From positions 20,124,001-20,188,000 of the forward strand of contig NC_135253.1 of the NCBI RefSeq assembly GCF_964204865.1: a DNA stretch of 64,000 nt, read 5' to 3'. This stretch comes from Styela clava. Taxonomy: Eukaryota > Chordata > Ascidiacea > Stolidobranchia > Styelidae. The stretch's first letter is position 1. Every line of letters starts with the position of its first letter. Made by a program: the position numbers and the translations under genes. The notes below the pieces were generated by a model, which searched no databases, was not told the origin of the DNA, and worked only from the letters and a program-made list of their open reading frames with translations. This document shows positions 3,284-44,932 of this stretch, piece by piece.

Positions 3284-3755
3284 ATCCTATTGCAAAATGA
3301 AATGACAAAACAATAAATTAGATGATGTCCATGGTTTGGAAAATTTGTGTAGGCTTTCCAATATATGTTTGGTGAGTTCCGTCATTTAATTCCGTCACAA
3401 CTTTAAACAGGGCATACTCGTCAGATTATTGGCTCCCCGTGTTGCCATCTTGCGGCGGTGTTTTATTAGAATTCTCATGTACTCATCATACAAACTCAGG
3501 AAAGTCCCAAGAAACATACAGAATGCGAAACAGCCAGCGGCAAAAAATCATAATTCCAAACGTGTTTGTTTATTTTCTAATTCCAGATATATTATATTCT
3601 TAAACGCAGTGTTATTATTTCAAAAATTGCTTTATCTGTTCTTCCACTTCCGGGAACATTAGTAACCTATCAAGACACTTACGTTAATTTGCTTAGTCAC
3701 CACAAGTAATAGATTTCAATGGTACATCAATAGGTAAAATTTAGTATTATTCGCT

Positions 3756-13055: not shown

Positions 13056-13107
13056 GGTGATGTAATCGAATCGCCTGTGGCAATTTCTGAAAGTTTCTGC
13101 GGAACCT
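13056..13107 (+). pseudogene. Detached U4 3' fragment (nt 90-141)
   Basis: After a class A spacer start ending GATGATGTC the sequence jumps into U4 nt 90 (GGTGATGTAATCGAATCGCC) and continues to the 3' stem and a class B spacer. It lacks a 5' domain and promoter. The same fusion recurs at 31149 and 37261. Confidence 0.9.
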
Positions 13108-14976: not shown

Positions 14977-15599
14977 ATACTTTCGCGAGATGAAGTTACA
15001 AAACAATAAATAAAATGATGTCCACGGTTTGGAAAATTTGTGTAGGCTTCAAAATATACGTTTGGTCAGTTCAGACAACTCATCCTGTCGCAACTTTCAA
15101 CAGTGCATACACGTCAGATTATTGGCGTTTCGTTTTGCCACATTTCGACGGTGTTTCGTTAGAGTTTTCTTGTACATATTAACTCAAGAAATTTATAGCA
15201 CGATCCAAAATTCCAAGGAACTTACAGAATGCGAAACAGCCAGCAGCAAGAGAACATAATTCCAAACGTGTTTATTTTTTTATTTCAGATATATCATATT
15301 CTTAAATGCAGTGTTGATATTTTTAAAATTGCTGTATCTGCACTTCAACTCCCAAGAACATTAGTAACCTAACAAGGCAGTTACGGTAATTTTCTTAGTC
15401 ACCACAAGTAATAGATTTCATTGGTACTTTAATAAGAAAAGTTACCTCTCACTCATTAGCTTTGCGCAGTGGCAGTATCGTAACCAATGAGGTTTATCGA
15501 GCTAGCTGTTTGATTAAAATGAAAATCTGCTATTGTTATCTTCAATTGGAATACTTTGGATTGTAAGCTATTTTGGATATTCGTTCTTGGATACTAAAA

Positions 15600-16895
15600 A
15601 TGTATTACTCCGCAGCTCTTACAGGATCAATAGGGATTACAAGTAATCGCCCTCGATCGGTTGTGGCAGAGGTGAGTGATTCTATTGATATAAACCGATT
15701 TCTCTACATCTTGGGAGAAAACCCTATAACAAAAGGATATGTCGAACACCTGTCAGGAATTTTGGAAACTAGACCGAAAATTTGGTTGATATCTTTCAAA
15801 CAGTTGAATCCAACAAATCCAAATGATTCAGTTAGAGACAAATTTATTGTAGAAACGCAAAATGGCATTAAAGTCGATGGTGTAATAGTACGCTTTTTTC
15901 CACCCACAAAACCTCCAACAAGGATTAGCATTCGCGATATCCCAGACGAATCACGACCACAAGTCGTTTTCGAAGCTCTGAATAAGGCTGGATGCGGAAA
16001 AATTAAAAGCATGACCAAACTATACTACCGAAACACTCAACTATTCAACGGATATATAGCCGTATGGATAGATGATTTTAAACAGGAAAAACTGCCCCCC
16101 TTTCTTGTCATTGACAAAGCTAGGTGCAAAACCTACGTACCCACCGAGTTGTACAATCCAACATGCATGAACTGCCTTGATACTGGTCATAATGCAAGAA
16201 ATTGCCGAAATAAAACGAAATGTAGGTCGTGCAAAAGTGAAGGTCACGTTCAGGCAAATTGCCCCCTAAAATCCAATGTGAGACCGAATACCATGGAATC
16301 CTGGTTTAAGGAATCGATATCCACAAAACCTGGAATAGTATCACATGTAGGAGAAAAAGAAGATGCAATACCAAACAATAACACCACACCAGAAATAGGA
16401 GTAAACCAAATTCCAGAGGCAGTGTTCCCAACTTCAAAATCCGACACAGTATCTGATACGGATTTGTTAAACGAAGAAGTAAAAGATTGGTCTCTATCAG
16501 AAGACAATACTATAACAACACCCAAAAAGCGCACTCCACCTCGCAAAACAGTCCCGAAGCCTAAATTAAAACCTACATCCACAATAGGGAACACTCCAAT
16601 TAGACCCCCAGTAATTGGCAAATCGTATGTAAACATGGTAATTAACGACTTCGAGATTAGAGACAGCACGTCATCATCAGTATTCTCAGACATACTTCAA
16701 AGTAACTCGGCACCGGCATACCTAGAGAACCCAGATAGCACGTATGAAACAGACCCATCACAAACACCCAGACTTGAACCTACTATGAACAAAACCGAAA
16801 AACAGATTGGAAAACGGGGAAGAGAAAATACTTCCTCGTCGACAACGTCGAATATATCACCCTCGCCAAAAAAGGGGAAAGACAATAAAACATAG
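15600..16895 (+). CDS. Retrotransposon ORF1 protein (RRM-like, two CCHC knuckles)
   Basis: 431 aa from the first ATG (15600); an in-frame TAA at 15564 limits any upstream extension. Residues of about 90-165 alternate strand and helix segments like an RRM fold (TRISIRDIPDE ... GYIAVWIDDF), an inference. Residues 189-221 hold two zinc knuckles, both C-x2-C-x4-H-x4-C (CMNCLDTGHNARNC and CRSCKSEGHVQANC). The C-terminal half is rich in Ser/Thr/Pro and ends in a basic tract (KRGREN ... SPKKGKDNK). The presumed role, as for other Tx1/L1 ORF1 proteins, is RNA binding and chaperoning of the element transcript. The frame is intact. Confidence 0.88.
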   Translation: MYYSAALTGSIGITSNRPRSVVAEVSDSIDINRFLYILGENPITKGYVEHLSGILETRPKIWLISFKQLNPTNPNDSVRDKFIVETQNGIKVDGVIVRFFPPTKPPTRISIRDIPDESRPQVVFEALNKAGCGKIKSMTKLYYRNTQLFNGYIAVWIDDFKQEKLPPFLVIDKARCKTYVPTELYNPTCMNCLDTGHNARNCRNKTKCRSCKSEGHVQANCPLKSNVRPNTMESWFKESISTKPGIVSHVGEKEDAIPNNNTTPEIGVNQIPEAVFPTSKSDTVSDTDLLNEEVKDWSLSEDNTITTPKKRTPPRKTVPKPKLKPTSTIGNTPIRPPVIGKSYVNMVINDFEIRDSTSSSVFSDILQSNSAPAYLENPDSTYETDPSQTPRLEPTMNKTEKQIGKRGRENTSSSTTSNISPSPKKGKDNKT

Positions 16896-16932
16896 AAAGT
16901 ATAAAATAAAAATCATCTACAAGACCCAATAT

Positions 16933-19900
16933 ATGACTGAAAATCTATCACAATTAAAAATAATCTCACTGAACGTAAACGGACTGGAAAAAAATTGAAA
17001 TAAACTTAAAATCTTCATAACTTATTACAACCCAGACATTATTGCTTTACAAGAAGTCCACAGAGTTAAAAGAGACGTTTCCGAGAACCGACTTCAAAAC
17101 ATGGGGTACAGATTATTTATTAACTCACTGACCGACTTCGATAAGAGGGATGACCAAAGATTCTTCCAAGGCACCGCCACTGCAGTAAGAGAAAACTTAT
17201 GTGCAACGCACAGCTTTGAATATGTTACATTCATACCTTGTAGAGCGTGTTCGACAACAATGACGAACTTACAAACCAAAGACAAGCTATCGCTAGTAAA
17301 TGTTTATGCACCTCCCAGAAGAGGCGACAGAAAAACTAGAATGTTCTACGAAAAGCTGATAAACTTAGTGAGAGAGATCAAGCATATTCAAATAATTTGC
17401 GGTGACTTTAACATGGTTCATCAGGAAATAGACGTCAGCAACCAAAACTCATTTACACAAGGGAACACAGAAATGCAATGGAAAGACTTTATACAAGCTT
17501 ACAACTACATAGACACGTATAGATATCACTGGCCCGATAAAAGATTATATACAATTACCAGGAGAAGACAATCCCGACGAATAGATCGAATATATATTCC
17601 GTACAACATTAGTCATGAATTGAAAAATACAGAATATTTAGTAAACACCGTTTCAGACCACCACTTTGCATCACACATCACTTTCAAAAATATTAAACAA
17701 GTTAACTGGGGACGGGGAACCTGGAAAAACAATACAGCTCATTTTAGGCATGAAAAAGTCAGGTTTTTGATAAATGAGATATACAAAAAAGAAGAACAAA
17801 GAAAACACGAATATGAAATACTTGCCGACTGGTGGGACAACTTGAAGACTAAAATTAAAAAAAGCCTCCTCCAACACGGAATTAACGAAGCAAAGGTAAA
17901 GAAACAAAATGAAAGCAGGTGGAAAAATGAAATTCTAAATAGCATGAACAAGTCACCATCAAACCAAGCAATGTATATGCTTATTAAAAACCTAAAACAA
18001 ATGGAAAAAGAAAAAGTGATGTTTAAACAAAATACAGCAAAAATTAAAGCATTAGAACAAAACGAAAGACCGACAAAATATTTCTTTGACAAATTGAAAA
18101 CTAGAAGACGTAAAACCACTATAGACAGACTACAAAACAAAGAAGGAAATTATTTAAAAACAAAAAACGAAATTTTGGAAGAAGCGCAAACATTCTATAA
18201 AACACTATGGACACAAACAACACCAGGTGAGGAAGATAGAATGGAAGAATACCTCAACATATATGGGGAAACTAAGCTTAGCACTGAAGAAAAGGAACAA
18301 ATGGGGACCTTAGCTTCAAAAGAAGAACTTCTCGTGACTTTAAAACAAATGGATAACTATAAAACACCGGGACCAGACGGACTATCAAAGGAATTTTACG
18401 TTGAATTTTGGGAAATTTTGAAGAATGACTTGCACCAGCTAGTAAACAATGCTATCGCTTTCGGCACCTTACCCACCAGTAGCAAAGAATCGATAGTCAC
18501 CCTTATCTATAAAAAAGGAAATTCAAATCACCTATCTAACTACCGGCCCATATCTAACCTAAATGTAGATTTTAAACTGATATCAAAAATATTAGCTAAC
18601 CGATTGAAACCTATCTTGGATAAATATATAATGCCAACACAGAAAAGCGCAATTCCTAAACGATCTATATTTGATAATTTACGAAACGTTCAAGGAATAT
18701 GGAATTATACAACAAAATGGAACCTACCTTTATATATAATCAGTTTCGATCAGGAAAAAGCTTTTGATATGGTTAACCAACGTTTTTTATTCAAAACCAT
18801 GACCAAACTAAACTTCAACAAAAATATCATTAACTTAATCAAAGAAATGTACAATCGGATATACAGCAGAATACAAATTAACGGAGCTAAAACCAATAAA
18901 ATCTTTCTGACAAGAGGAATCAGACAAGGCTGTCCATTGAGCATGGCAATGTACACCTTAGCCGCTGACCCATTGGCAAGAAAAATCATCGCGAACCAAA
19001 AGATAAAAGGATTCAGCATCGGAAAATACAAAACCGTAATTGATCAATTTGCAGACGACAATACAACATACGCGCGAGACATTGAATCGATAGAACACAC
19101 CTTCAACGAATTTAAGACTTACGAATTAATAACGGGACAAAAAATAAATGAGAAAAAAACTGAAATATTATGTACTAACCAAATCGCAATGCAAAAACTT
19201 AAAACCTCGCCGTACAACAAATTCATGAAACCAAATATAAAAGTTTTAGGCCAAATTATAGGACCCCAACAGACGGAAAAAACTTGGGATGAAATCCTCA
19301 AAAGACTTAGGAACACCCTGGAAGTTAATAAGCAGAGACAATTGACGTGGATAGGTAAATTCCAAATTTTAAATGCCTTGTGTATATCGCAGGTAATATA
19401 CCACGCTAGAGTAGTGAATGTACCACCAATCTACATACGGAAACTGAACACACTTTTCTTTGACTTCATCTGGCACCCAGAAAGCTTTCAGCTATTGGCA
19501 CAAAATAAATTAACAGCCGATTACTACAATGGAGGATTAAATGCCCCATGCATAAAAACAAAAATACAGGCATGTCTTCTGGAAAAAATAAAAACATTGA
19601 AATCAATAACAGAACCTAAAGAGATATGGCACGCAATAGCCCTTTATGACATTGGCACGAAGATAAAGAGAATAAATCCCAAACTTTACACCAACCAGAT
19701 GCCCCATGCCCTCGAAACCCCAAAGCACTGGAAAGATTGCATTCAGTTAACCGAAAAAATAGGCATAAAAGAAGAAAAATGGACAGACATTTCTTTCAAA
19801 CAAATTTACCAGACGATCTTGAAATCAAACCAATCGGGAAGAAGAAAACAGGTAGAAACACAAACATGCACCAATTGGAAAGAGATTCTAAGTAAAGAAA

Positions 19901-20451
19901 AAGACATGAAAAATATAATAACAAACAAGGAAAGGGTGATATCATACAGGCTGGCGCACAACGCAATACTAAATGGAACACAAAGAAAAAGAATCAATTT
20001 ATATCATACAGTAAGCGGGAAAATGGCTATCACGGAGTGTAAATTCTGCTCGAAATCGGAGGACAACACGGAACACCTTATTAAAGAATGTCCATTCACG
20101 TGGCGGATTTTGTATAAAATACAAAAATCTCTGAAACAGGCTCTGCAAACACATCACCCCTTTTTAAATGAACTACTTTGGCATAATATCTACTTAAAAG
20201 AAAACCGAAAAATAATATTAATAACAGTGAATATAGTAAAAACTCAAATATACAAGGTCAAATCAATGAAGGACATGACAAACACAAAAATGAATCCCGA
20301 AGAAAGTAAAAGGATAGAAGATGGCATAGTTTCGAAAACTTTTAATAAAATGGGCTGGAGAGTAAAAAACATAGAATCACTCAGCGAAGAAATAAAACAG
20401 ATAGAGAAAATTGAAAATTGGTTGGCCCAAAAAAGTGTTGCTACAAACTAA
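16933..20451 (+). pseudogene. Retrotransposon ORF2: endonuclease and reverse transcriptase, one nonsense codon
   Basis: The frame starts with MTENLSQLKIISLNVNGL, the start of an APE-type endonuclease, but meets TGA at 16996-16998 (codon 22) and then continues open to 20451. Counting from the next Met (17101, 1116 aa), visible features are NVYAPP, GDFNM at about 101-105, SRRIDRIYIP, SDHHF near 183 (catalytic APE motifs), GPDG near 423, NYRPIS, SFDQEKAFD, GIRQGCP, FADD at 650-653 (RT catalytic aspartates), and a C-x2-C-x8-H-x4-C motif from residue 980. The role is target-primed reverse transcription: nick the U4 DNA and copy the element RNA. The stop cuts off the first endonuclease strand, so this copy is probably inactive unless the codon is read through or is an assembly error. 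Confidence 0.9.
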
Positions 20452-20655
20452 TTAAAAAAAATGATTAATTTACTGATTTTATGCTCAAAATTGAAAAACC
20501 ATCTAAAACGGAAATGACGAAATAGGAGCCTATCAATGAGAACGGCAATAGTCATCTATTGCCATTATGTGATACGGTCTATAACTGACCAAGCTCCGAA
20601 TGGGATACAGGAAATGACGGTTTATCCCCGATCCCGTATATTATAATCTGATCCG

Positions 20656-20686
<31 letters not shown>
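20452..20686 (+). other. Retrotransposon 3' UTR and A tail
   Basis: 204 bp of UTR then 31 A. It contains a perfect 8-bp hairpin, GGCAATAG-TCAT-CTATTGCC (20544-20563), and a possible longer stem between ATACGG (about 20572) and CCGTAT (about 20635). The UTR ends TCTGATCCG before the A tail. A shared 3' structure may be what the reverse transcriptase recognises; that is inference. Confidence 0.7.
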
Positions 20687-20687
<1 letters not shown>

Positions 20688-20800
20688 AATGAGGTTTATC
20701 CGAGGTGCGATTATTGCTAGTTGAAAACTATTACCAATACCCCGCCCTGGTGATGCAATCGCATCGCCTGTGGCAATTTCTGAAGGGTTCTGTGGAACCT

Positions 20801-21056
20801 ATCCTCTCGCGGAATGAAATGACAAAACAATAAATTAGATGATGTTCATGGTTTGGAAAACTTGTGTAGGCTTGCAAATACATGGCTGGTCAGTTCTGTC
20901 AACTCATCCTGTCGCAATTTTCTATGCTTTTGCCAATACATTGATGTCTTTTGTTTTGAAAAATATGTTTAATTTTCCGAATCTATGTCAAACAAATTGT
21001 GACAACTTTACGAATTACTGCTGGAAATGCACTCCACAGTAAGTTATCACTCCAAC
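20801..21056 (+). repeat. U4 spacer, first part (hybrid), cut by a DNA transposon
   Basis: Starts as class A (GAAATGACAAAACAATAAAT), passes into class B (TATGTTTAATTTTCCGAATC), and is interrupted at 21057. The spacer resumes at 24864 with a 7-bp duplication. Confidence 0.88.
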
Positions 21057-24000
21057 CAATGACATTAAACAACATGATAGGCAACTCTGACGTCACTCCA
21101 TAAGACTACAGGCAAAACATTGTATTTCATGATACGCTCCAATGCACATATTTCTCGTCGCCTTTCGCGTCCGTTTTCCGCTCGCTTTTGCTACTCGGCG
21201 TCTTTTTTACGTGTAGTACCTGCCTTTTTGCGCCTGTAACGAAACAAAATAATCTCTATATCTAAAAAGTTTTGCTTACTTGGAAAGCTGGAATAACAGG
21301 CAAGCTGTAAAGAGCAATTCTGGACATCATAGACTTTTTTTTTTATCAGAGAAGATTACAAACGCGATAGCGGAAAGATTTGTGTGGAACATTTTGCAGA
21401 TAATGACAAAGTTCAAAGTTAGTAATTTTAATGTTTGCGCTTAATCATTGAAATTTCATTTAAAGAGGGTGTCATACAAAACTGTGCTGCGATACAATTC
21501 CATAACACAAAGTTTGCACCTATCGAACTTGCTTTTGTAGGTGAATTTATTAGACATATTACATATTCAGTTAATCGTAGGTAACATTGCTGGTACATAA
21601 TGCATCATAGAGGTTTGTTTAAATTTAGGAATTTAGCTCATAGCCCACTAATTAATATTATCTTCTATGCAGGAGGTTGCAGGGCTGAATTCAACTTGCA
21701 GCCTTACCGATCACCTGACGATGCTCATTTAGTTTGGCTCGAGCAAGTCTCCTTGAAATGCTTGTGTGGATGGAAACTACCTATATTATTTGCCTTCCTC
21801 CGATTTTAGACAAATTTATTCTGAGGGATTTCGCATATAATTCTCACTGATTGTTGGCTGTTTATAATTCCTATTGATTGTGAATTCTGATTATAACAAT
21901 GAGTTGAAAATTTTTTTACCTAATTTACTGGCACCTTTTTCTTGTCAATACTCCAAGCTGAGGTAATAAACATGACAATACATTTATGTCATCTGGAAGC
22001 AAAATATGCACACTAATTAATAGTTTGGCACATTGAGATAATACATCATGACAGAAAATACAAGTTAAAGATATGTATGACCATCACATGGTAATTAAAA
22101 TTAAAAAAAATTAATAGGGGCTGTGGAGTATGGAAAGTTCAAGACAAAGAAAAAGACAAATGTTCATAGCTCATGAACTCTCAATTTTGCCTCCATTGCT
22201 TTGTGAAGGCCAATATATTTCGAGTGGCTGAATTGGTTTACCTTTATGATAGCAACGATTTTGTATTTAATATAGCGAGATTATTTCAATTTAATTGAAG
22301 TGATATAATCTTCCAAAGCAATGCTTGAATCGTATAGAATAGATCAGTGGTGTCAAACTCATGGGTTTTCGAGAGCCGCATTGCATTTTGAAAATTGTAA
22401 AAAGAGCCGCAAACAGTTTTTGATAATGTATACTTAAAAGATATTTTTAAGATAGTTTAAGTTTGTGACATATATTGTGATGCAACTAAACAGTTGGATT
22501 AAGTTTTATTATTTTCTTCAATTTCAAATGCAATTACATATTAATATTTGCATTCCACTATTATTGCAACATTAGCAAGTTACAGTATTTATTATAAAAA
22601 ATCGTAAAATTCTATGTACAACCATCAAAATCATTTTTGAACAAGCTTTGAATAAGGAAAGAATGATACATACACCAAAAATAACTTAATCTAAATATAT
22701 GAACCTAAAATTAACAAAAATACTACAGTATAAACTCAATGTTTTAATAATTACATTTGTCCTGGCGTTTGGCATCTTTTTTGTGTCACCAGCATACTAA
22801 GGCCAGTCTGAAATGATTTTATAGTACCAACTCTAACTAACGAGGCCACATGATCATGGGTTTATCTGGATCTTTACGAATGTTTAATTAATTCCAGTAA
22901 TGCAAAAAAGTTACTTTTATAATTTCATGTATAGATCAGTAAAAAAACAAATGACAGATTTTTTCGACAAGACATTTCGCACTACATTGCGTGGCATAGG
23001 ATTGCTTGAATTATTATTGATATTGATTTTTAGTAACTAAGTCGTTGTATAATTATATTAATATACAAACACATGGAAATTTTCTGTTCGAAGTTGGTCT
23101 TCGAATTTGTCATATTGACTGCTGAGCTTATTGTGTTTTTTGATTGTATTGATGGAAATATGACAAATTAAACAATGTGCTTCAGAATTTTGTGAAGAGC
23201 AGAAATGTTACAACTCCCATTTTCTTCGAAAATGCCACCTTCTTCATGTACTTTGCGTTTAATTTAATTACTCAAGTGTTTTATTCAAGTATTCTTTTGC
23301 TAGCTTGATGTGTATTCTTAATTGGGTCAAAATGTGGACAAAAAAATCAATATTCCAAAACTACTTTCAGTAAATTGTTTTCTGTGTGAATAATCAATTT
23401 CACTTTAAAAGGTTTGAAAAATCTATTACATTTAGATAAAAAAAAAAACTTCCAAAATACTATTACAATTATTGTTAATCGAGGGCCGCACTGGAAGTTC
23501 TCTGGGGCCGCGAGTTTGAGATCCCTGGTCTAGCTTGAAGTTGTTCAAAAAATATATGATAGTATTTTATCATGAATGATGATTATACCCCTTCCGGAAT
23601 TTCTTCTATAGTACTACCAAAAGTTGATGAACCAAATATAACACAGGTGCAGTGAGGTACCCGTAATCCTCATTTCCAAAGCTGTTTTAAGTATGTCTGG
23701 CGTGTTTTGTGCCTTTTTACAAATAAGACCGCTTAAGCAATCTTACGCTTTGGAATTTTTAGTTATTTTCCTCAAGCCATGCAGGATGTGGGGGCCATAC
23801 ACAACTCTACCGGAGGGTCAAATGTCTTCGCATGCCTCCATAGGTTGTTTTTCTATTGCAAATTTCTATTTTCAATTGCATTATATTTCTTGGAATCACA
23901 CTGTCACTGATATGTCGCCAGACTTCTGATATCTCCCCGTCTGCTATAGTTGTCCTGTGAATAAATAATAGGAAATTGAGATTAGACGAATAGTTGAAAG

Positions 24001-24863
24001 TTTTGCTTTATGTCGGCTTAATTTCTTGATTGATATACTTACTATTTCTGCTATTGCCTCTTGTGCTGCAAGAGTCTCACAATGCTTAGACAGGTTTGTC
24101 CACAACTTTCACATCTGAAGAAAGAGAGGAGATTTATTAATTTTCGTTAAGAATAAATAAAGCAGTCTATATGATTCAGAATGGAAAAGCTAATAAATTC
24201 AATATCTCATGTTTTATTTAAAAAATATTTTACTGAATTTGGTATATAAACCAACTAATAAAAGGGTTTAGTCAGAAAATTACAAGCATTCGTGGCTCCA
24301 AATACTTGAGAAATCAGACTATACAATATAGACCGGTATGAGTGAAATGTTAGGTGAACTTGTTAACACTTTGATTCAATACGCAAATAAAAGTGAATGC
24401 GTAATAGTATGTTACAATGAGCAGCAATCAACAATGAGTATATATCCTCACTGATTAAAAAAATCTAACTGGAGGTGCATGAACTATTTGAAACCATAAC
24501 GGGTAAGTAAATATGTAATTTCGGCAGATGGGCAACTACGTACCGTACTGAATTAATAACTTCGTAGTATTTGACAAAGGCTGGCTTTCCCACATGTACT
24601 TAACAGTGCGATGCCGGGTGTGATATACAACAATAGTATTCACCTTACCTTTTACCGATTTCTTTTTACCCCAACTTTCAAAAATATCATTAAAATCGAC
24701 AACAACTGTCAAAGCAGGCACGAACACCATTCGTGCTACGCCTTGAAAGCAGCACACATCCGCTCGTTTTCGTCTCGTCAAGTATGTGCATTGGAGCGTG
24801 CTATCGAATACGATCTTCGGACAAAAATGCCGGAGTTGCGCATCATGTTGTTTAATGTCATTG
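21057..24863. mobile_element. P-like DNA transposon (degenerate)
   Basis: A 3807-bp insertion in a U4 spacer. Ends are inverted repeats of about 30 bp starting CAATGACATTAAACAACATG; the inner part differs by a few bases (GATAGGCAACTC versus GATGCGCAACTC). The flanks share CTCCAAC (21050-21056 and 24864-24870). After a polypyrimidine-AG, 21352-21411 can encode GKICVEHFADND, which resembles the C-terminal half of a THAP zinc finger, the DNA-binding domain of P-type transposases. No intact transposase frame is visible. P elements usually make 8-bp duplications; here 7 bp match, so the superfamily call is tentative. A hAT-type element is nested at 22345-23527. Confidence 0.7.
22345..23527. mobile_element. 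Non-autonomous hAT-like element nested in the P-like element
   Basis: Terminal inverted repeats CAGTGGTGTCAAACTC at the left and GAGTTTGAGATCCCTG at the right, with GAGCCGC / GGGGCCGCG just inside. The 8-bp flanks (GAATAGAT and GTCTAGCT) match only in part. About 1.18 kb, no coding capacity seen, AT-rich interior. Confidence 0.75.
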
Positions 24864-25188
24864 CTCCAACAAAATTATGAACGATTCACCGGCTGCATTT
24901 ATTGCCACCTTGCGGCGGTTTTTCATTAGAGTTCTCATGTACTCATCATACTAACTCAAGAAAGTTCCAAAAAACTTACAAAATGCGAATCAGCCAGCGG
25001 CAAAAGAACTTAATTCCAAACGTGTTTATTTTTTAATGCAGTGTTATTATTTTAATAATTGCTTTATCTGTACTTCCACTCCCAGGAACATTAGTTAGCC
25101 TGAAAAGACAGTTACGATAGTACTCTTAGTCACCACAAGTAATAGATTTTATTGGTACTTTAATAAGTAAAGTTTTCTCTCTTTCATT

Positions 25189-27216: not shown

Positions 27217-27867
27217 ATCCTCTCGCGGAATGAAATGACAAAACAATAAATTAGATGATGTCCATGGTTTGGAAAATTTGTGTAGGCTTACAAATATATA
27301 TGGCTGATCAGTTCCGACAACTCATCCTGTCGCAACTTTCATCAGTGCATACACGTCAGATTATTGGCTTTTCGCGTTGCCACATTGCGGCGGTGTTTCG
27401 TTAGAGTTCTCTTGTACAATTCAACTCAAGGAACATAGTACGATCCAAATTCCAAAGAACATATAGAATACAAAACAGCCAGCAGCAAGAAAACATAATT
27501 CCAAACGTGTTTATTTTTTTTTATTCCAGATATATTCTATTCTTAAATGCAGTGTTATTATTTTAATAATTGCTTTATCTGTACTTCCACTCCAAGGAAC
27601 ATTAACTAGCCTAATAAGTTATCACTCCAACAAAATTATGACCGATTCACCGGCTGCATTGATTGCCACCTTGCGGCGGTGTTTCATTAGAGTTCTCATG
27701 TACGCATCATACTAACTCAAGAAAGTTCCAATAAACTTATAAATGCGAAACAGCCAGCGGCAAAAGAACATAAATCCAAACGTGTTTATTTTTTTATTCC
27801 AGATTATATCTATTCCTAAATGCAGTGCTATTATTTTAATATATAATTGTTTTATCTGTACTTCCAT

Positions 27868-27973
27868 TTTATCCGAGGTGCGATTATTGCTAGTTGAAAA
27901 CTATTACCAATACCCCGCTCTGGTGATGCAATCGCATTGCCTGTGGCAATTTCTGTAGGGTTCTGTGGAACCT
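27868..27973 (+). pseudogene. U4 copy 31, 5'-truncated
   Basis: Spacer sequence (CTTCCAT) is fused directly to U4 nt 36 (TTTATCCGAGG). PSE, stem II and half of the 5' stem-loop are missing; nt 36-141 are otherwise preserved. A deletion pseudogene. Confidence 0.93.
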
Positions 27974-28449: not shown

Positions 28450-28636
28450 AGCTTTGCGCATTGGCGGTATCGTAAACACGAGAGTGGAAAAAACTCTGAT
28501 CCGTAAGAAAAAAAAAAAAAAACAATGAGGTTTATCCGAGGTGCGATTATTGCTAGTTGAAAACTATTACCATTACCCCGCCTTGGTGATGCAATCGCAT
28601 CGCCTGTGGCAATTTTTGAAGGGTTCTGTGGAACCT
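28450..28636 (+). pseudogene. U4 copy 32 with a short A-tailed insertion
   Basis: U4 nt 1-26 (28450-28475, with changes such as GCATTGGCGG) then a 47-bp insert and nt 28-141 from 28523. The insert lies at the same U4 position as the full-length retrotransposon. Cannot encode functional U4. Confidence 0.92.
28476..28522 (+). mobile_element. Short A-tailed insertion at the U4 retrotransposon site
   Basis: 31-32 bp (a small AGAGT...ACTCT hairpin, then TCTGATCCGTAAG) followed by 15 A, abutting CAATGAGG exactly as in the full-length element. The element's own 3' UTR ends TCTGATCCG before its A tail, so this is probably a severely 5'-truncated copy or a relative sharing the 3' end. No target duplication is visible on the left. 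Confidence 0.8.
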
Positions 28637-29109: not shown

Positions 29110-29282
29110 AGCTTTGCGCAGTGGCAGTATCGTAAATAATGAGAATAATAAAAATAAAAAAAAACTAATGACGTTCATCCGAGGTGCGATTATTGCTAGT
29201 TGAAAACTACTATCAATACCCCGCCCTGTGATGCAATCAATCCCTTTGCCTGTGGCAATTTCCGAAGGGTTCTGCAGGACCT
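29110..29282 (+). pseudogene. U4 copy 33 with an A-rich insertion, degenerate
   Basis: U4 nt 1-26, then diverged target copies flanking an A-rich insert, then the rest of U4 with changes (TGACGTTCATCC, CTACTATCAATACC, CAATCAATCCCTTTGCC, TTTCCGAAGG, GCAGGACCT). Confidence 0.88.
29144..29164 (+). mobile_element. A-rich insertion at the same U4 site
   Basis: AATAATAAAAATAAAAAAAA lies between TAATGAG (29137-29143) and TAATGAC (29166-29172), diverged versions of the U4 CAATGAG target. It looks like an old, extremely truncated insertion of which only the A tail and the target duplication remain. Confidence 0.65.
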
Positions 29283-31148: not shown

Positions 31149-31200
31149 GGTGATGTAATCGAATCGCCTGTGGCAATTTCTGAAAGTTTCTGCGGAACCT
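31149..31200 (+). pseudogene. Detached U4 3' fragment (nt 90-141)
   Basis: Second instance of the GATGATGTC to GGTGATGTAATCGAATCGCC fusion, including the same GAATCGCC change as at 13056. Followed by a class B spacer. Confidence 0.9.
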
Positions 31201-37260: not shown

Positions 37261-37312
37261 GGTGATGTAATCGCATCGCCTGTGGCAATTTCTGAAAGTT
37301 TCTGCGGAACCT
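37261..37312 (+). pseudogene. Detached U4 3' fragment (nt 90-141)
   Basis: Third instance of the fusion of the class A start (GATGATGTC) to U4 nt 90; here the hairpin arm reads GCATCGCC. Class B spacer follows. Confidence 0.9.
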
Positions 37313-38522: not shown

Positions 38523-38562
38523 GTCCTCTCGCAAAATGAAATGACAAAACAATGAATTAGAT

Positions 38563-40629
38563 CAGTGGTTCCCAAACTTTTTTGACCATCGCCCCCCTAA
38601 AGTAGTTTATACAACTTCATCGCCCCCCTGCACTACAAAAAAATATAAAGTCAGAAACGAATTTATTACAGACCAAATAAGAAGACAAATCATAGTTTAT
38701 AGTGTTTTTTAATGAGATAGATGAGCTTGGTGTTCTTCAGCGAGTTTTGTTTATATCTAAAATTACCCCATTTACTGATGGAAAGGTGATTTCATTGTTC
38801 TAATAGCAATAGTAGCACGGCTGAAAACCCCTTTTTCACCATATAATAGGTCGGAAATGAAAGAATCCAGGGTCCTACCTCCTCAAAAACCGCCGTGTAC
38901 TTTCCACTTCCTAAATTCACCCCATTTCACATTAAAATAATAAAAACAAAGTTAATTTTCCAAATTTATAATAATGATTTTTGTACATTTCATTCATTCG
39001 TACAGCCTGATGACCTGCACCAAAATATTTCGGAAAAATCCCCGATTCCTCATCCTATCACGGCCTCCAGTCCATAATTAACCAGCCATTTTTTTGGATT
39101 CATGGACTCGGATGTGGAAGAAGCCGTGACTGACTATCGGCTACGGCCCAGGGGTCGGCAAATTTTATGTCGATCGCAGGACAAAATTCAGGGTTGCTAG
39201 TCTTTCGCGGGTCGCATATATTTTTTGAGAGTTAAAAACGGAACACACGCGAAAACTGCGACAATCGTGAACTCAACTCAGTCGTCTTATTAAAAAAATT
39301 TTACAATGACATTAATGTGACACTGTCTTGTTGCTGAATCACGCTGGATAGCTTTACGACGCCAAGATTGAAACATTTTCTAAATGGGCATCACCAAACC
39401 CACTTCTTTGCTTGTTCTTTGTAATGTTCATTTTCGAAAATAATGGTTTGCACAAATATGTACTTCCAAACATCGAAGTGAATATTTTCGCACGATTTGT
39501 GAAATTTTGATAAATATATATTTTCTTTAAGAAGATGCATTCTTACAAAAATCAAGCATGATGAATCTCCCGAATATGAATATGAATTTTATTTCCTTAT
39601 TGCTTTGCAATATATTCGAATATTTACTGCGCTATTGAACCCCTGCACTCAGCATCAACTTTTCTGCGTGTTTCCATTTGTCTAATTATAATTAAATTGT
39701 AGGCTCGTTAAACGAGTGGCTGTTCACTAAATTGTTAGGATATAGTATAATTTACTCTAAACGTGTCTCACGATAAATTCTGTTACGTAAAAAAATGTAA
39801 TTTACTCCTCGAGCGTAGATTATAAATAAAAAATTTTCATCGTCAAAACCGCCGTTTGGATATTTCCCCGGACATAGACTTCCTTGTTTACTTCGTTACA
39901 TTGGCCAATCAGCAAGATGCAAAAAACGTAACAATGCCCCTTTCGCAGGCGCTCAGACACTCTCACTCGGACAGATTTCAGGGGTGGTCGTGAGCACTAC
40001 CTCATTTTCACGTTTTTGAATTATATTCGTTAGTATTTAGTTGTTTTTCGGAAATTTAAATATAAATCAAATAAGTCAATGATTACTTTGTCTTTCTATG
40101 AGTTTCAGTTTAAATACAGCAATCAAAAATTAGTGTAGAAATAGCTGTGATAGACTAGGCTAAAATTCTTTATCGGTACTTTTAAAAAGCAGATTGTTAA
40201 ATGGTGTGTATTAGAATGATAGTTTGAATCAAATACCCCATTTTACAGGCCACAGCTCGCGAAACCACTCTTAAAATAAGCACCGGAAATTTTAAAATGG
40301 TTAAGTATGGAAAGAATTTTCCGCGGTCAAAGGTCGGGGAAAGGTCCATTCAGTGAATCGTCCCGGGCCAGATTATTTTACTTCGGCAGTATTTTGCCGA
40401 CCACTGGGATACGCAAACTACCTTACCTTACTGCAAAGACGAGACCAGTAATCCTTTCGCGTGTGAATATCGCCCACATGATTCAAGTCTGCGAATGCAC
40501 ACAAAGTACAGAATTAAGTGCGCCGAACATAAAACAGCTTTCGCGAAATCGCCCCCTTAGACTTTTTCGCCCCCCTCTGTATCGTTTTCGCCCACTGGGG
40601 GGCGATATCGCCCACTTTGGGAATCACTG
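38563..40629. mobile_element. hAT-like element in a U4 spacer, with nested insertions
   Basis: Terminal inverted repeats CAGTGGTTCCCAAA and TTTGGGAATCACTG, flanked by a perfect 8-bp duplication AATTAGAT (38555-38562 and 40630-40637) of the host spacer. C-rich ATCGCCCCCC motifs lie inside both ends. It contains SINE-related sequence (about 39,050-39,148 and 40,407-40,530) split by another element. No transposase frame seen. Confidence 0.9.
39149..40406. mobile_element. Second hAT-like element splitting a SINE
   Basis: Ends CAGGGGTCGGCAAA and TTTTGCCGACCACTG form an inverted repeat of about 14 bp with one mismatch. Flanks GGCTACGG and GGATACGC look like a diverged 8-bp duplication of the SINE sequence GGTTACGC. 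The flanking SINE parts join when the insert is removed in thought. Confidence 0.7.
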
Positions 40630-40935
40630 AATTAGATTACTTCCATGGTTTGGAAAATTTGGGTAGGCTTGCAAATACATGACTGGTCAGTTTTGGCAAC
40701 TCATCCTGTCGCAATTTTCTATGCTTTTGCTAATACATTGATGTCTTTTGTTTTGAAAAATATGTTTAATTTTCCGAATTTATGTCAAACAAATTGCGAC
40801 AACTTTACGAATTACTGCTGGAAATGCACTCCACAGTAAGTTATCACTCCAACAAAATTATGACCGATTCACCGGCCGAATTTATTGCCACCTTGCGACT
40901 GTGTTTCATTAGAGTTCTCATGTACTCATCATACT

Positions 40936-44445: not shown

Positions 44446-44497
44446 AATTCAGGAATTATATTACTAACAACTTCTTGACTTAAGTAAATTATCGAGA

Positions 44498-44932
44498 ATG
44501 GCATTCACATTTGCAGCTTTCTGTTACATTGCAGCAATCGTGTTGACTGCGTTTTTGATATTCTTTGCGATCTGGCAAATTATCGCATTTGATGAATTAA
44601 AAACTGACTATAAAAATCCGATAGATCAATGCAACAGTCTCAACCCTCTAGTTCTTCCGGAATACGGAATCCACGTCTTTTTCAACCTTCTGTTTCTATG
44701 GGCGGGAGAGTTTGTTACAGTTTTTCTCAATATTCCTCTTGTGGCGTACCATGTTTACAGATACATGCACCGGCCAATAATGAGCAGTCCTGGACTCTAT
44801 GATCCCACCACGGTAATGAATGCTGATATCTTGGCATATTCCATGAAGGAAGGTTGGGGAAAACTTGCTTTTTATTTGATATCATTCTTTTACTACTTGT
44901 ATCGAATGATCTACGTATTGGTGACATATTAA
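44498..44932 (+). CDS. CNIH1: Cornichon family cargo receptor (CNIH1-like)
   Basis: 144 aa in one uninterrupted exon, the usual length for CNIH1. Conserved family blocks are seen along the whole protein: [10 protein letters not shown] at the N-terminus, [19 protein letters not shown] (about 28-46), [28 protein letters not shown] (about 87-105), MNADILAY, and [20 protein letters not shown] at the C-terminus. Hydrophobic segments at about 8-30, 57-80 and 120-142 are the membrane helices. Cornichon proteins sit in the ER/early Golgi membrane and load transmembrane cargo, such as TGF-alpha-type ligands, into COPII vesicles. The extra loop that marks CNIH2/3 is absent. AATAAA at 44983 follows the stop by about 50 nt. 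Lack of introns is notable; an old retrocopy is possible, but the frame is intact and highly conserved. Confidence 0.95.

What the first reader, a model, noticed from the sequence alone, without database searches (positions are those of the whole stretch)
15485..20700. A retrotransposon that targets the U4 snRNA gene
Seen: a near full-length L1/Tx1-type element with an A tail sits inside a U4 gene, with a perfect 14-bp duplication equal to U4 nt 28-41. Known: Tx1-group elements include lineages fixed on RNA genes, for example Keno in U2 snRNA. Inferred: this lineage uses U4 as its fixed target, which I do not know to have been described. A repetitive RNA array is a classic safe harbour for such elements.
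Basis: partly seen in the sequence, partly recalled or inferred. Interest (0 to 1): 0.95.

Follow-up and report, generated by a model that had tools for sequence, protein, structure and literature searches.

The report
Retrotransposon that lives in U4 genes
An L1-like jumping gene in an animal genome, probably a sea squirt, inserts at one fixed spot inside U4 splicing-RNA genes and appears to use the U4 gene's own start signal to make its RNA, so that its target is also its promoter.

Summary
Confirmed and extended. Window 15499-20686 is a full-length two-ORF L1-type element with a 31-nt A tail, inside one unit of a U4 snRNA array. Two more A-tailed inserts lie at the same U4 position in the window. 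In the 377-Mb genome, 6 of the 9 ORF2-bearing copies found lie in U4 genes; for 5 the 3' junction at U4 nt 27/28 was read. The other 3 are elsewhere. All 3 begin with U4 nt 2/3-41, joined to the element at the same junction, with no downstream U4. Two of the 3 have their own target duplication outside that U4 piece. So the RNA most likely starts at U4 +1, from the U4 promoter. A PSE-like block lies 58 nt upstream of 4 of 4 in-U4 loci shown and of 0 of 3 outside copies. The "14-bp duplication" is probably at least partly this inherited leader. Related lineages in the same genome sit at fixed points in histone H3 and H2A and apparently spliced-leader RNA genes.

The parts
15400..15414 (+). PSE-like block (CACCACAAGTAATAG) 58 nt upstream of U4 +1, the presumed promoter element of this U4 unit and of the inserted element
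   Evidence: upstream sequences; position
15458..15498 (+). U4 nt 1-41: 5' part of the host U4 gene, also the leader carried by copies outside U4
15485..15498 (+). 5' copy of the 14-bp repeat CAATGAGGTTTATC (U4 nt 28-41)
15499..20655 (+). element body (short 5' UTR, ORF1, ORF2, 3' UTR)
15600..16895 (+). ORF1, CCHC zinc knuckle
16933..20451 (+). ORF2: APE-type endonuclease and reverse transcriptase, C-terminal Cys/His cluster (read by eye); one in-frame stop near the N-terminus in this copy
20452..20655 (+). 3' UTR, structured (z -2.5, 5 of 200 shuffles fold as well), ends ..CTGATCCG as most related elements do
20656..20686 (+). A tail, 31 nt
20687..20798 (+). U4 nt 28-139, rest of the host gene; its first 14 bp are the 3' copy of the repeat
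28476..28522 (+). second insertion at the same U4 site: 47-bp truncated piece ending ..ACTCTGATCCGTAAG+A15 then U4 nt 28; no duplication; 3' end resembles the related family found at histone genes
29136..29164 (+). third, degraded insertion at the same U4 site: A-rich tail followed by a mutated U4 nt 27/28 onwards (boundaries approximate)

Best explanation
This is a target-specific L1-type (APE) non-LTR retrotransposon whose home is one position of the U4 snRNA gene. Shown: separate copies share the same 3' junction at U4 nt 27/28 (within 1 nt), in the same orientation, in two U4 clusters, and a third cluster holds an old copy. Shown: the 3 copies found outside U4 carry U4 nt 2/3-41 in front of the element at the same junction (..TATC|GAGCTA) and no U4 downstream. 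Inferred: the RNA is made from the host U4 promoter, starts at U4 +1, and reads [U4 1-41]-[element]-A(n). Inferred: the ORF2 endonuclease nicks the bottom strand of a U4 gene at nt 27/28 and reverse transcription starts from the A tail. Inferred: the U4 1-41 end of the cDNA anneals to U4 upstream of the nick, giving a full-length copy with a precise 5' end that regains the promoter. The 14-bp duplication is then largely the overlap between leader end (nt 41) and nick (nt 28). Copies that miss U4 keep the leader but lose the promoter.
For: Same-site insertions: window, C4:20117081 = C4b, three tandem copies T1-T3 at C10:7399774-7415324, and the two short inserts at 28476 and 29136. An old copy in a U4 gene at C10:8.88 Mb follows a poly(A)-only insert at the same site. 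Five full-length copies are 99.1-99.4% identical and 84 of 90 ungapped variable columns are private, so they look like separate insertions. A tails differ (31, 26, 40, 46, 36 nt). Exact A-run + U4 nt 27/28 junctions: 5 places, all U4, control 0. Leader at the same junction in 3 of 3 outside copies. C3 has an outer duplication GATTAATTAGGGTT. C9 has CTTATTCTT, with the unfilled site readable in a nearby repeat. C4b has T at nt 36 in its 5' repeat but A in its 3' flank, as expected if the 5' piece came from RNA. The truncated insert at 28476 has no duplication. PSE-like block before 4 of 4 in-U4 loci shown (window, C4b, T1, C10 8.88 Mb) and 0 of 3 outside. The nick site is not T-rich, unlike the TTTT/A consensus of ordinary L1 (recalled). 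Precedent: Drosophila melanogaster-type R1 and many R2 transcripts are inferred to carry upstream 28S, linked to precise 5' junctions and, for R1, to 28S-tagged copies elsewhere (PMC2718515, PMC3774820, passages).
Against: No transcript was seen; the start at U4 +1 is inferred from three DNA copies. 3 of 8 young copies are outside U4, and none of the 7 older relic flanks read is in U4, so specificity is leaky or recent. The 3' junction differs by about 1 nt between C4 and C10. The old C10 8.88-Mb copy is broken at element nt 3580 and its own 3' junction is not seen; extra bases sit before its start. The nt-36 mismatch in C4b could be later gene conversion or mutation; T1 and the C10:16.89-Mb copy also carry single changes in this stretch. 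C10:16.89 Mb shows no clear outer duplication. In the tandem array only U4 nt 27-41 lies between copies, so the leader cannot be read there. How an snRNA-promoter transcript becomes a polyadenylated mRNA is unexplained; the 3' UTR has no AATAAA or ATTAAA.
Confidence: 0.86

Rival explanations
1. The 14-bp repeat is an ordinary target-site duplication from staggered cuts at U4 28 and 41, made anew at each insertion. The U4 pieces on outside copies come from readthrough or some other accident.
For: The repeat is perfect in the window; C3 has a 14-bp outer duplication; ancestral R1 also makes 14-bp duplications (PMC2718515 passages).
Against: C4b repeats differ at nt 36. The truncated insert at 28476 has none. 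The boundary at nt 41 is identical in 3 of 3 outside copies, where no U4 target existed to be cut. C9 has about 9-11 bp.
Confidence: 0.2
2. The U4 5' pieces on outside copies arose by template switching from the element cDNA to U4 snRNA during reverse transcription, as recalled for U6/L1 chimeras in mammals.
For: U4 RNA is abundant (recalled); the chimeras are flanked by outer duplications in 2 of 3 cases.
Against: The same U4 nt 41 / element nt 1 junction in 3 of 3, identical to the in-U4 copies; template switching should give varied junctions and usually a nearly complete snRNA.
Confidence: 0.06
3. One chance insertion in a U4 gene was multiplied by recombination in the arrays, so the repeated position is not evidence of targeting.
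For: U4 units are tandem and clearly recombine (partial units); T2 and T3 share 4 variants.
Against: Separate clusters, mostly private variants, different tails, and two short inserts with different bodies at the same nt. The outside copies show that the lineage retrotransposes.
Confidence: 0.04
4. A generic, non-specific L1-type element found in U4 by chance.
For: 3 of 8 young copies and the older relics are outside U4.
Against: A naive uniform model, assuming 95 U4 genes, gives about 10^-20 for 5 of 8 in U4, and about 10^-15 for six at one nt and strand of a 620-bp unit, ignoring the 1-nt wobble. The nick site is not of the L1 type (recalled).
Confidence: 0.01

Closest known systems
Keno (U2 snRNA genes; Tx1 clade by recall)
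   Same: APE-type element fixed inside an snRNA gene, in animals (PMC4640811 and PMC3706591 passages).
   Different: Target is U2, not U4; no sequence was available to compare, so kinship is untested.
Utopia (U2 snRNA genes)
   Same: snRNA-gene-specific, sometimes tandem, specificity of varying strength.
   Different: Restriction-like endonuclease and U2 target; here APE-type endonuclease and U4.
R1 and R2 (28S rDNA)
   Same: R2 is co-transcribed with its target gene; some R1 and R2 RNAs are inferred to carry a target-derived 5' leader with precise 5' junctions; R1 copies elsewhere can be tagged with target sequence.
   Different: R2 releases its RNA with an HDV-like ribozyme; none found here. 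Different target and clade; the leader here reaches the target gene's transcription start.
Tx1L, Mutsu, Dewa
   Same: Fixed-target elements; Mutsu in 5S rRNA genes, Dewa in a tRNA-Leu spacer (PMC3706591 passages); Tx1-clade target-specific elements have an APE-type endonuclease.
   Different: Different targets; not compared by sequence.
Dada-U1 / Dada-U6
   Same: Fixed sites inside snRNA genes.
   Different: DDE DNA transposons.

Membership tests
L1-lineage APE non-LTR retrotransposon | APE-type endonuclease plus reverse transcriptase in ORF2 | tested here: met
   Pfam Exo_endo_phos 1.7e-11 and RVT_1 7.1e-31; best solved relative human L1 ORF2p, E 1e-68, R2 far weaker
L1-lineage APE non-LTR retrotransposon | ORF1 with CCHC knuckle, A tail | tested here: met
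   zf-CCHC just above cut-off, 21.4 against 20.8 bits; A tails on all 8 young copies
Tx1 group | RT groups with Tx1L, Keno, Mutsu, Dewa | not testable with these tools
   reference sequences not held; a tree of 11 RT rows from this genome only was made
Target-specific non-LTR element | separate copies share one junction in a multicopy gene | tested here: met
   3' junction at U4 nt 27/28 read for 5 of 9 ORF2-bearing copies, a sixth in a U4 gene with its 3' end lost, plus 2 short inserts
Target-specific non-LTR element | copies elsewhere are rare or absent | tested here: inconclusive
   3 of 8 young copies outside U4, all with U4 leader; 0 of 7 old relic flanks in U4, 2 of them with the 3' end present
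Keno / Utopia | insertion in U2 snRNA genes | tested here: not met
   the snRNA junctions found are U4; U2 genes were not searched for separately
Utopia | restriction-like endonuclease | tested here: not met
   N-terminal APE domain in ORF2
R2-like RNA processing | HDV-like ribozyme at the 5' end | tested here: not met
   Rfam search at E up to 1 over 15455-20800 returned only U4

The most novel reading that the evidence does not exclude
This genome holds a radiation of promoter-parasitic L1/Tx1-like elements. Each lineage is fixed just downstream of the start of a multicopy Pol II gene: U4 snRNA, histone H3 just before the ATG, H2A before the ATG and at codon 4, and spliced-leader RNA at the exon/intron junction. 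The 5' fragment of the host gene is a working part of the element: it supplies the promoter, travels as an RNA leader, and guides the 5' junction on return.
Probability: 0.6. Interest if true: 0.86.

Novelty: new variant of a known kind. Interest (0 to 1): 0.78.

Why it matters
U4 would be a new target for site-specific retrotransposons. A 2015 paper lists only U2 (Keno, Utopia), U1 and U6 (Dada) among snRNA genes (PMC4640811 passages). The outside copies act as natural 5' RACE: they suggest where the element's RNA starts and so tie target choice to promoter supply. That would explain why missing the target is self-limiting, and it is directly testable. The related elements on histone H3/H2A and apparent spliced-leader genes would extend fixed-site LINEs to protein-coding histone genes, and offer endonucleases with a range of specificities to study.

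Tried and rejected
HDV-like or other known RNA at the 5' end: Rfam at E up to 1 over the element gave only U4. U4-derived sequence in the 5' UTR: no signal (388 and 97 of 500 shuffles as good). A target mimic in the 3' UTR (AATGACGGTTTATCC against AATGAGGTTTATCC): 4 of 500 shuffles as good by alignment, 20 of 2000 and 28 of 2000 by shared words. Several comparisons were made and GGAAATGA recurs in relatives' 3' UTRs, so I do not rely on it. The fuzzy scan missed many U4 copies and I use it for no count. RT placement against Keno/Tx1L: not possible. A whole-genome U4 count with RF00015 did not complete, so U4 genes are counted only in the window (48 Rfam matches) and as 94 U4 5' ends in the fetched stretches plus window. 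A census of the 5' junction did not complete. H3 as a mere accident for the related family was dropped after 8 of 8 further C8 flanks also proved to be histone genes; the 3 flanks read on C6 and C10 are not histone.

Literature: U4 snRNA with retrotransposon, 19 papers, titles and abstract starts seen, none on insertion into U4 genes. Related searches, of which only part was listed: 25 of 42; 15 of 190; 5 of 5; 10 of 911; 8 of 62; 10 of 15,424; 10 of 136; 12 of 138. Passages seen in PMC4640811, PMC3706591, PMC8869645, PMC3747384, PMC3774820, PMC2718515. Subscription papers, preprints and Repbase are not in this library, so absence from print is not shown beyond these listings.
Full report
The observation. 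The window (C4:20124001-20188000 of an unnamed 376.6-Mb genome) carries a U4 snRNA array: 48 Rfam matches, all on +, mostly about 620 bp apart. One U4 gene is split: nt 1-41 at 15458-15498 and nt 28-139 at 20687-20798. Between them lies an element with a 101-bp 5' UTR, ORF1 (CCHC knuckle), ORF2 (APE endonuclease and RT), a 204-nt 3' UTR and 31 A. The 14-bp repeat is exact. ORF2 of this copy has one in-frame stop near its start; the search of the genome shows other copies with longer open frames there.

More insertions at the same place. In the window, U4 units 28450 and 29110 are also interrupted after nt 26 by A-tailed inserts in the same orientation. The first is 47 bp, ends ACTCTGATCCGTAAG+A15, then resumes at nt 28. 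The second is degraded. In fetched stretches of the same genome the element recurs at C4:20117081-20122200 and as three head-to-tail copies at C10:7399774-7415324. Each of these is followed by an A tail and CAATGAGG or CCAATGAGG. An older copy lies in a U4 gene at C10:8.88 Mb, just after a poly(A)-only insert whose junction is A17|CCAATGAGG; the element there is about 87-91% identical, broken at its nt 3580, and its own 3' junction is lost. Five full-length copies are 99.1-99.4% identical, and 84 of 90 ungapped variable columns are private to one copy. That pattern, and unequal tails, points to separate insertions rather than array duplication.

Genome-wide. The ORF2 protein search listed 42 matches (2491 first-look candidates, 41 scored, so a lower bound). 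Nine copies belong to this lineage: 6 in U4 (window, C4b, T1, T2, T3, C10 8.88 Mb, the last as two matches) and 3 elsewhere (C3:19.86 Mb, C9:16.76 Mb minus, C10:16.89 Mb). The 3' UTR search listed 16 matches: 8 young (5 in U4, 3 elsewhere) and 8 diverged (74-92% identity). I read 7 of the 8 diverged flanks and none is U4; only 2 of the 7 (C17, C16) reach the element's 3' end, and the eighth (C10:22.06 Mb, 46 bp) was not read. The exact pattern of A-run plus U4 nt 27/28 onwards gave 7 matches at 5 distinct places, all in U4, reversed control 0. Under a naive uniform model with 95 U4 genes the enrichment is about 10^-20.

The key extra result. All 3 copies found outside U4 start with U4 nt 2 or 3 to 41, joined to the element at exactly the junction seen inside U4, and have no U4 at the 3' side. 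C3 is flanked outside this by GATTAATTAGGGTT. C9 is flanked by CTTATTCTT, with the unfilled version readable in a neighbouring repeat. C10:16.89 Mb shows no clear duplication, and has one change in its leader; its 3' flank is a repeat also found after the related C16 element. So U4 1-41 was most likely part of the RNA that was copied, and its 5' end is the U4 transcription start within 1-2 nt. Upstream of U4 genes a block like CACCACAARTGRTAG at -58 is conserved between clusters and looks like an snRNA proximal sequence element (name recalled). It is present before the 4 in-U4 loci shown and absent before the 3 outside copies.

Reading. The element is most likely transcribed from the U4 promoter as U4 1-41 + element + A tail. 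On insertion at U4 nt 27/28 the leader can pair with upstream U4, which would explain why all six U4 copies with ORF2 begin at the same element base (in the old C10 copy the U4 piece before it is scrambled). The 14-bp repeat would then mostly be leader end (41) over nick (28). Two facts favour this over a fresh duplication each time: C4b has T at nt 36 on the 5' side and A on the 3' side, and the truncated insert at 28476 has no duplication. Melanogaster-type R1 and many R2 show the same logic with 28S leaders (passages of PMC2718515 and PMC3774820). No RNA was examined here.

Context. RT sequences from this genome place the U4 element with a family at 75% RT identity and a C16 element at 59%, apart from eight others (100/100 support; order within the three unresolved). 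The nearest family's 3' UTR has 43 listed matches (195 first-look candidates, 40 scored), many on C8 7.33-7.88 Mb. Of 9 C8 flanks read, 3 enter histone H3 just before the ATG, 3 enter H2A just before the ATG (one of these is cut by a further insert), and 3 enter H2A at codon 4, two with identical tails and so perhaps one event. The 3 flanks read on C6 and C10 are not histone genes. An element at H3 carries at its 5' end a sequence like the exon of an apparent spliced-leader gene. Of 18 flanks of more distant relatives, 3 (L040, L041, L050) read A(n)|GTAAGTTTCTGAGCC and 2 (L052, L053) A(n)|CTAGAGCCCGAGC, which look like spliced-leader RNA genes at or near the 5' splice site; 2 share a satellite and 11 differ. 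This rests on reading the sequence; Rfam gave no spliced-leader match in the 20 pieces given. The apparent spliced-leader exon ..ATTCGCTATTTGATTAAG resembles the ascidian one (recalled), so the host is probably a tunicate; this is inference.

Novelty. A 2015 paper states that only Keno and Utopia (U2), Dada-U1 and Dada-U6 have been reported for snRNA genes (PMC4640811 passages). The listings, several of them short extracts of long result lists, showed no paper whose title or abstract start reports a U4- or histone-gene-specific LINE. Repbase and subscription papers were not searchable. I call it a new variant of a known kind: a target-specific LINE with a new target and evidence for target-as-promoter.

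Noticed in passing
L037, L080-L087 (C8:7.33-7.88 Mb): Related LINE family fixed on core histone genes: 3 flanks enter H3 just before the ATG, 3 enter H2A just before the ATG, 3 enter H2A at codon 4 (9 of 9 C8 flanks read; 3 flanks read on C6 and C10 are not histone).
   Followed up: partly
L040, L041, L050, L052, L053, L058, L059 (C8 4.2-4.5 Mb, C4 23.3-23.4 Mb): Related LINE families whose 3' junctions (5 of 18 flanks read) lie at or near the 5' splice site of what look like spliced-leader RNA genes (A(n)|GTAAGTTTCTGAGCC or A(n)|CTAGAGCCCGAGC); in the two 5' sides read an SL-like exon lies directly upstream of the element.
   Followed up: partly
L036 658-677, L085 from 93: Elements at histone sites begin with an SL-like sequence (..GAGTACTTGGTTGTATTAAG and a variant), as if their RNA had been trans-spliced or transcribed from an SL gene.
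   Followed up: no
L036, L037, L039-L057 (3' UTRs of related elements): The U4 promoter-like block (CACCACAAATGGTAG, up to 3 mismatches) occurs on the forward strand in 16 of 21 relative pieces (several are copies of one family; exact in L055; none on the reverse strand), but not in the U4 element's own 3' UTR. It often lies 47-48 nt before a CGGAAATGA-like motif (74 in L055, 239 in L040-L043), and L045 shows short tandem units starting near there: perhaps an internal promoter for SINE-like RNAs.
   Followed up: partly
L051, L054: Two related LINE copies on C10 and C16 (different RT rows) share one satellite target, A(n)|(C)GACGCAGCACTCTCTCGCCCGCC.
   Followed up: no
L035 and L039: The off-target U4-element copy at C10:16.89 Mb and the 50% related C16 element end at nearly the same point of one repeat (CGTTTTATGYCCTTAATAATTGG), perhaps mobilisation in trans or a shared secondary target.
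   Followed up: no
window 21050-24870: Insert in the U4 spacer without long ORFs that looks like a DNA transposon: 31-bp inverted repeats (21057-21087, 24833-24863) and 7-bp duplication CTCCAAC at 21050 and 24864; its end sequence also appears in L056 on C13.
   Followed up: partly
window 38555-40637: hAT-like insert 38563-40629 in the U4 spacer: CAGTGGTTCCCAAA...GGGAATCACTG ends and an 8-bp duplication AATTAGAT at 38555 and 40630 (family name recalled).
   Followed up: partly
window 13056-13105, 31149-31198, 37261-37310: Repeated partial U4 copies (nt 90-139) right after full units, an array variant spread among units.
   Followed up: no
window 27814-27971: U4 unit lacking nt 1-36, joined to its spacer by a deletion that ends within the insertion target region.
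   Followed up: no
window 44468-44929: Cornichon-family protein frame downstream of the array (Pfam 5.8e-42).
   Followed up: yes
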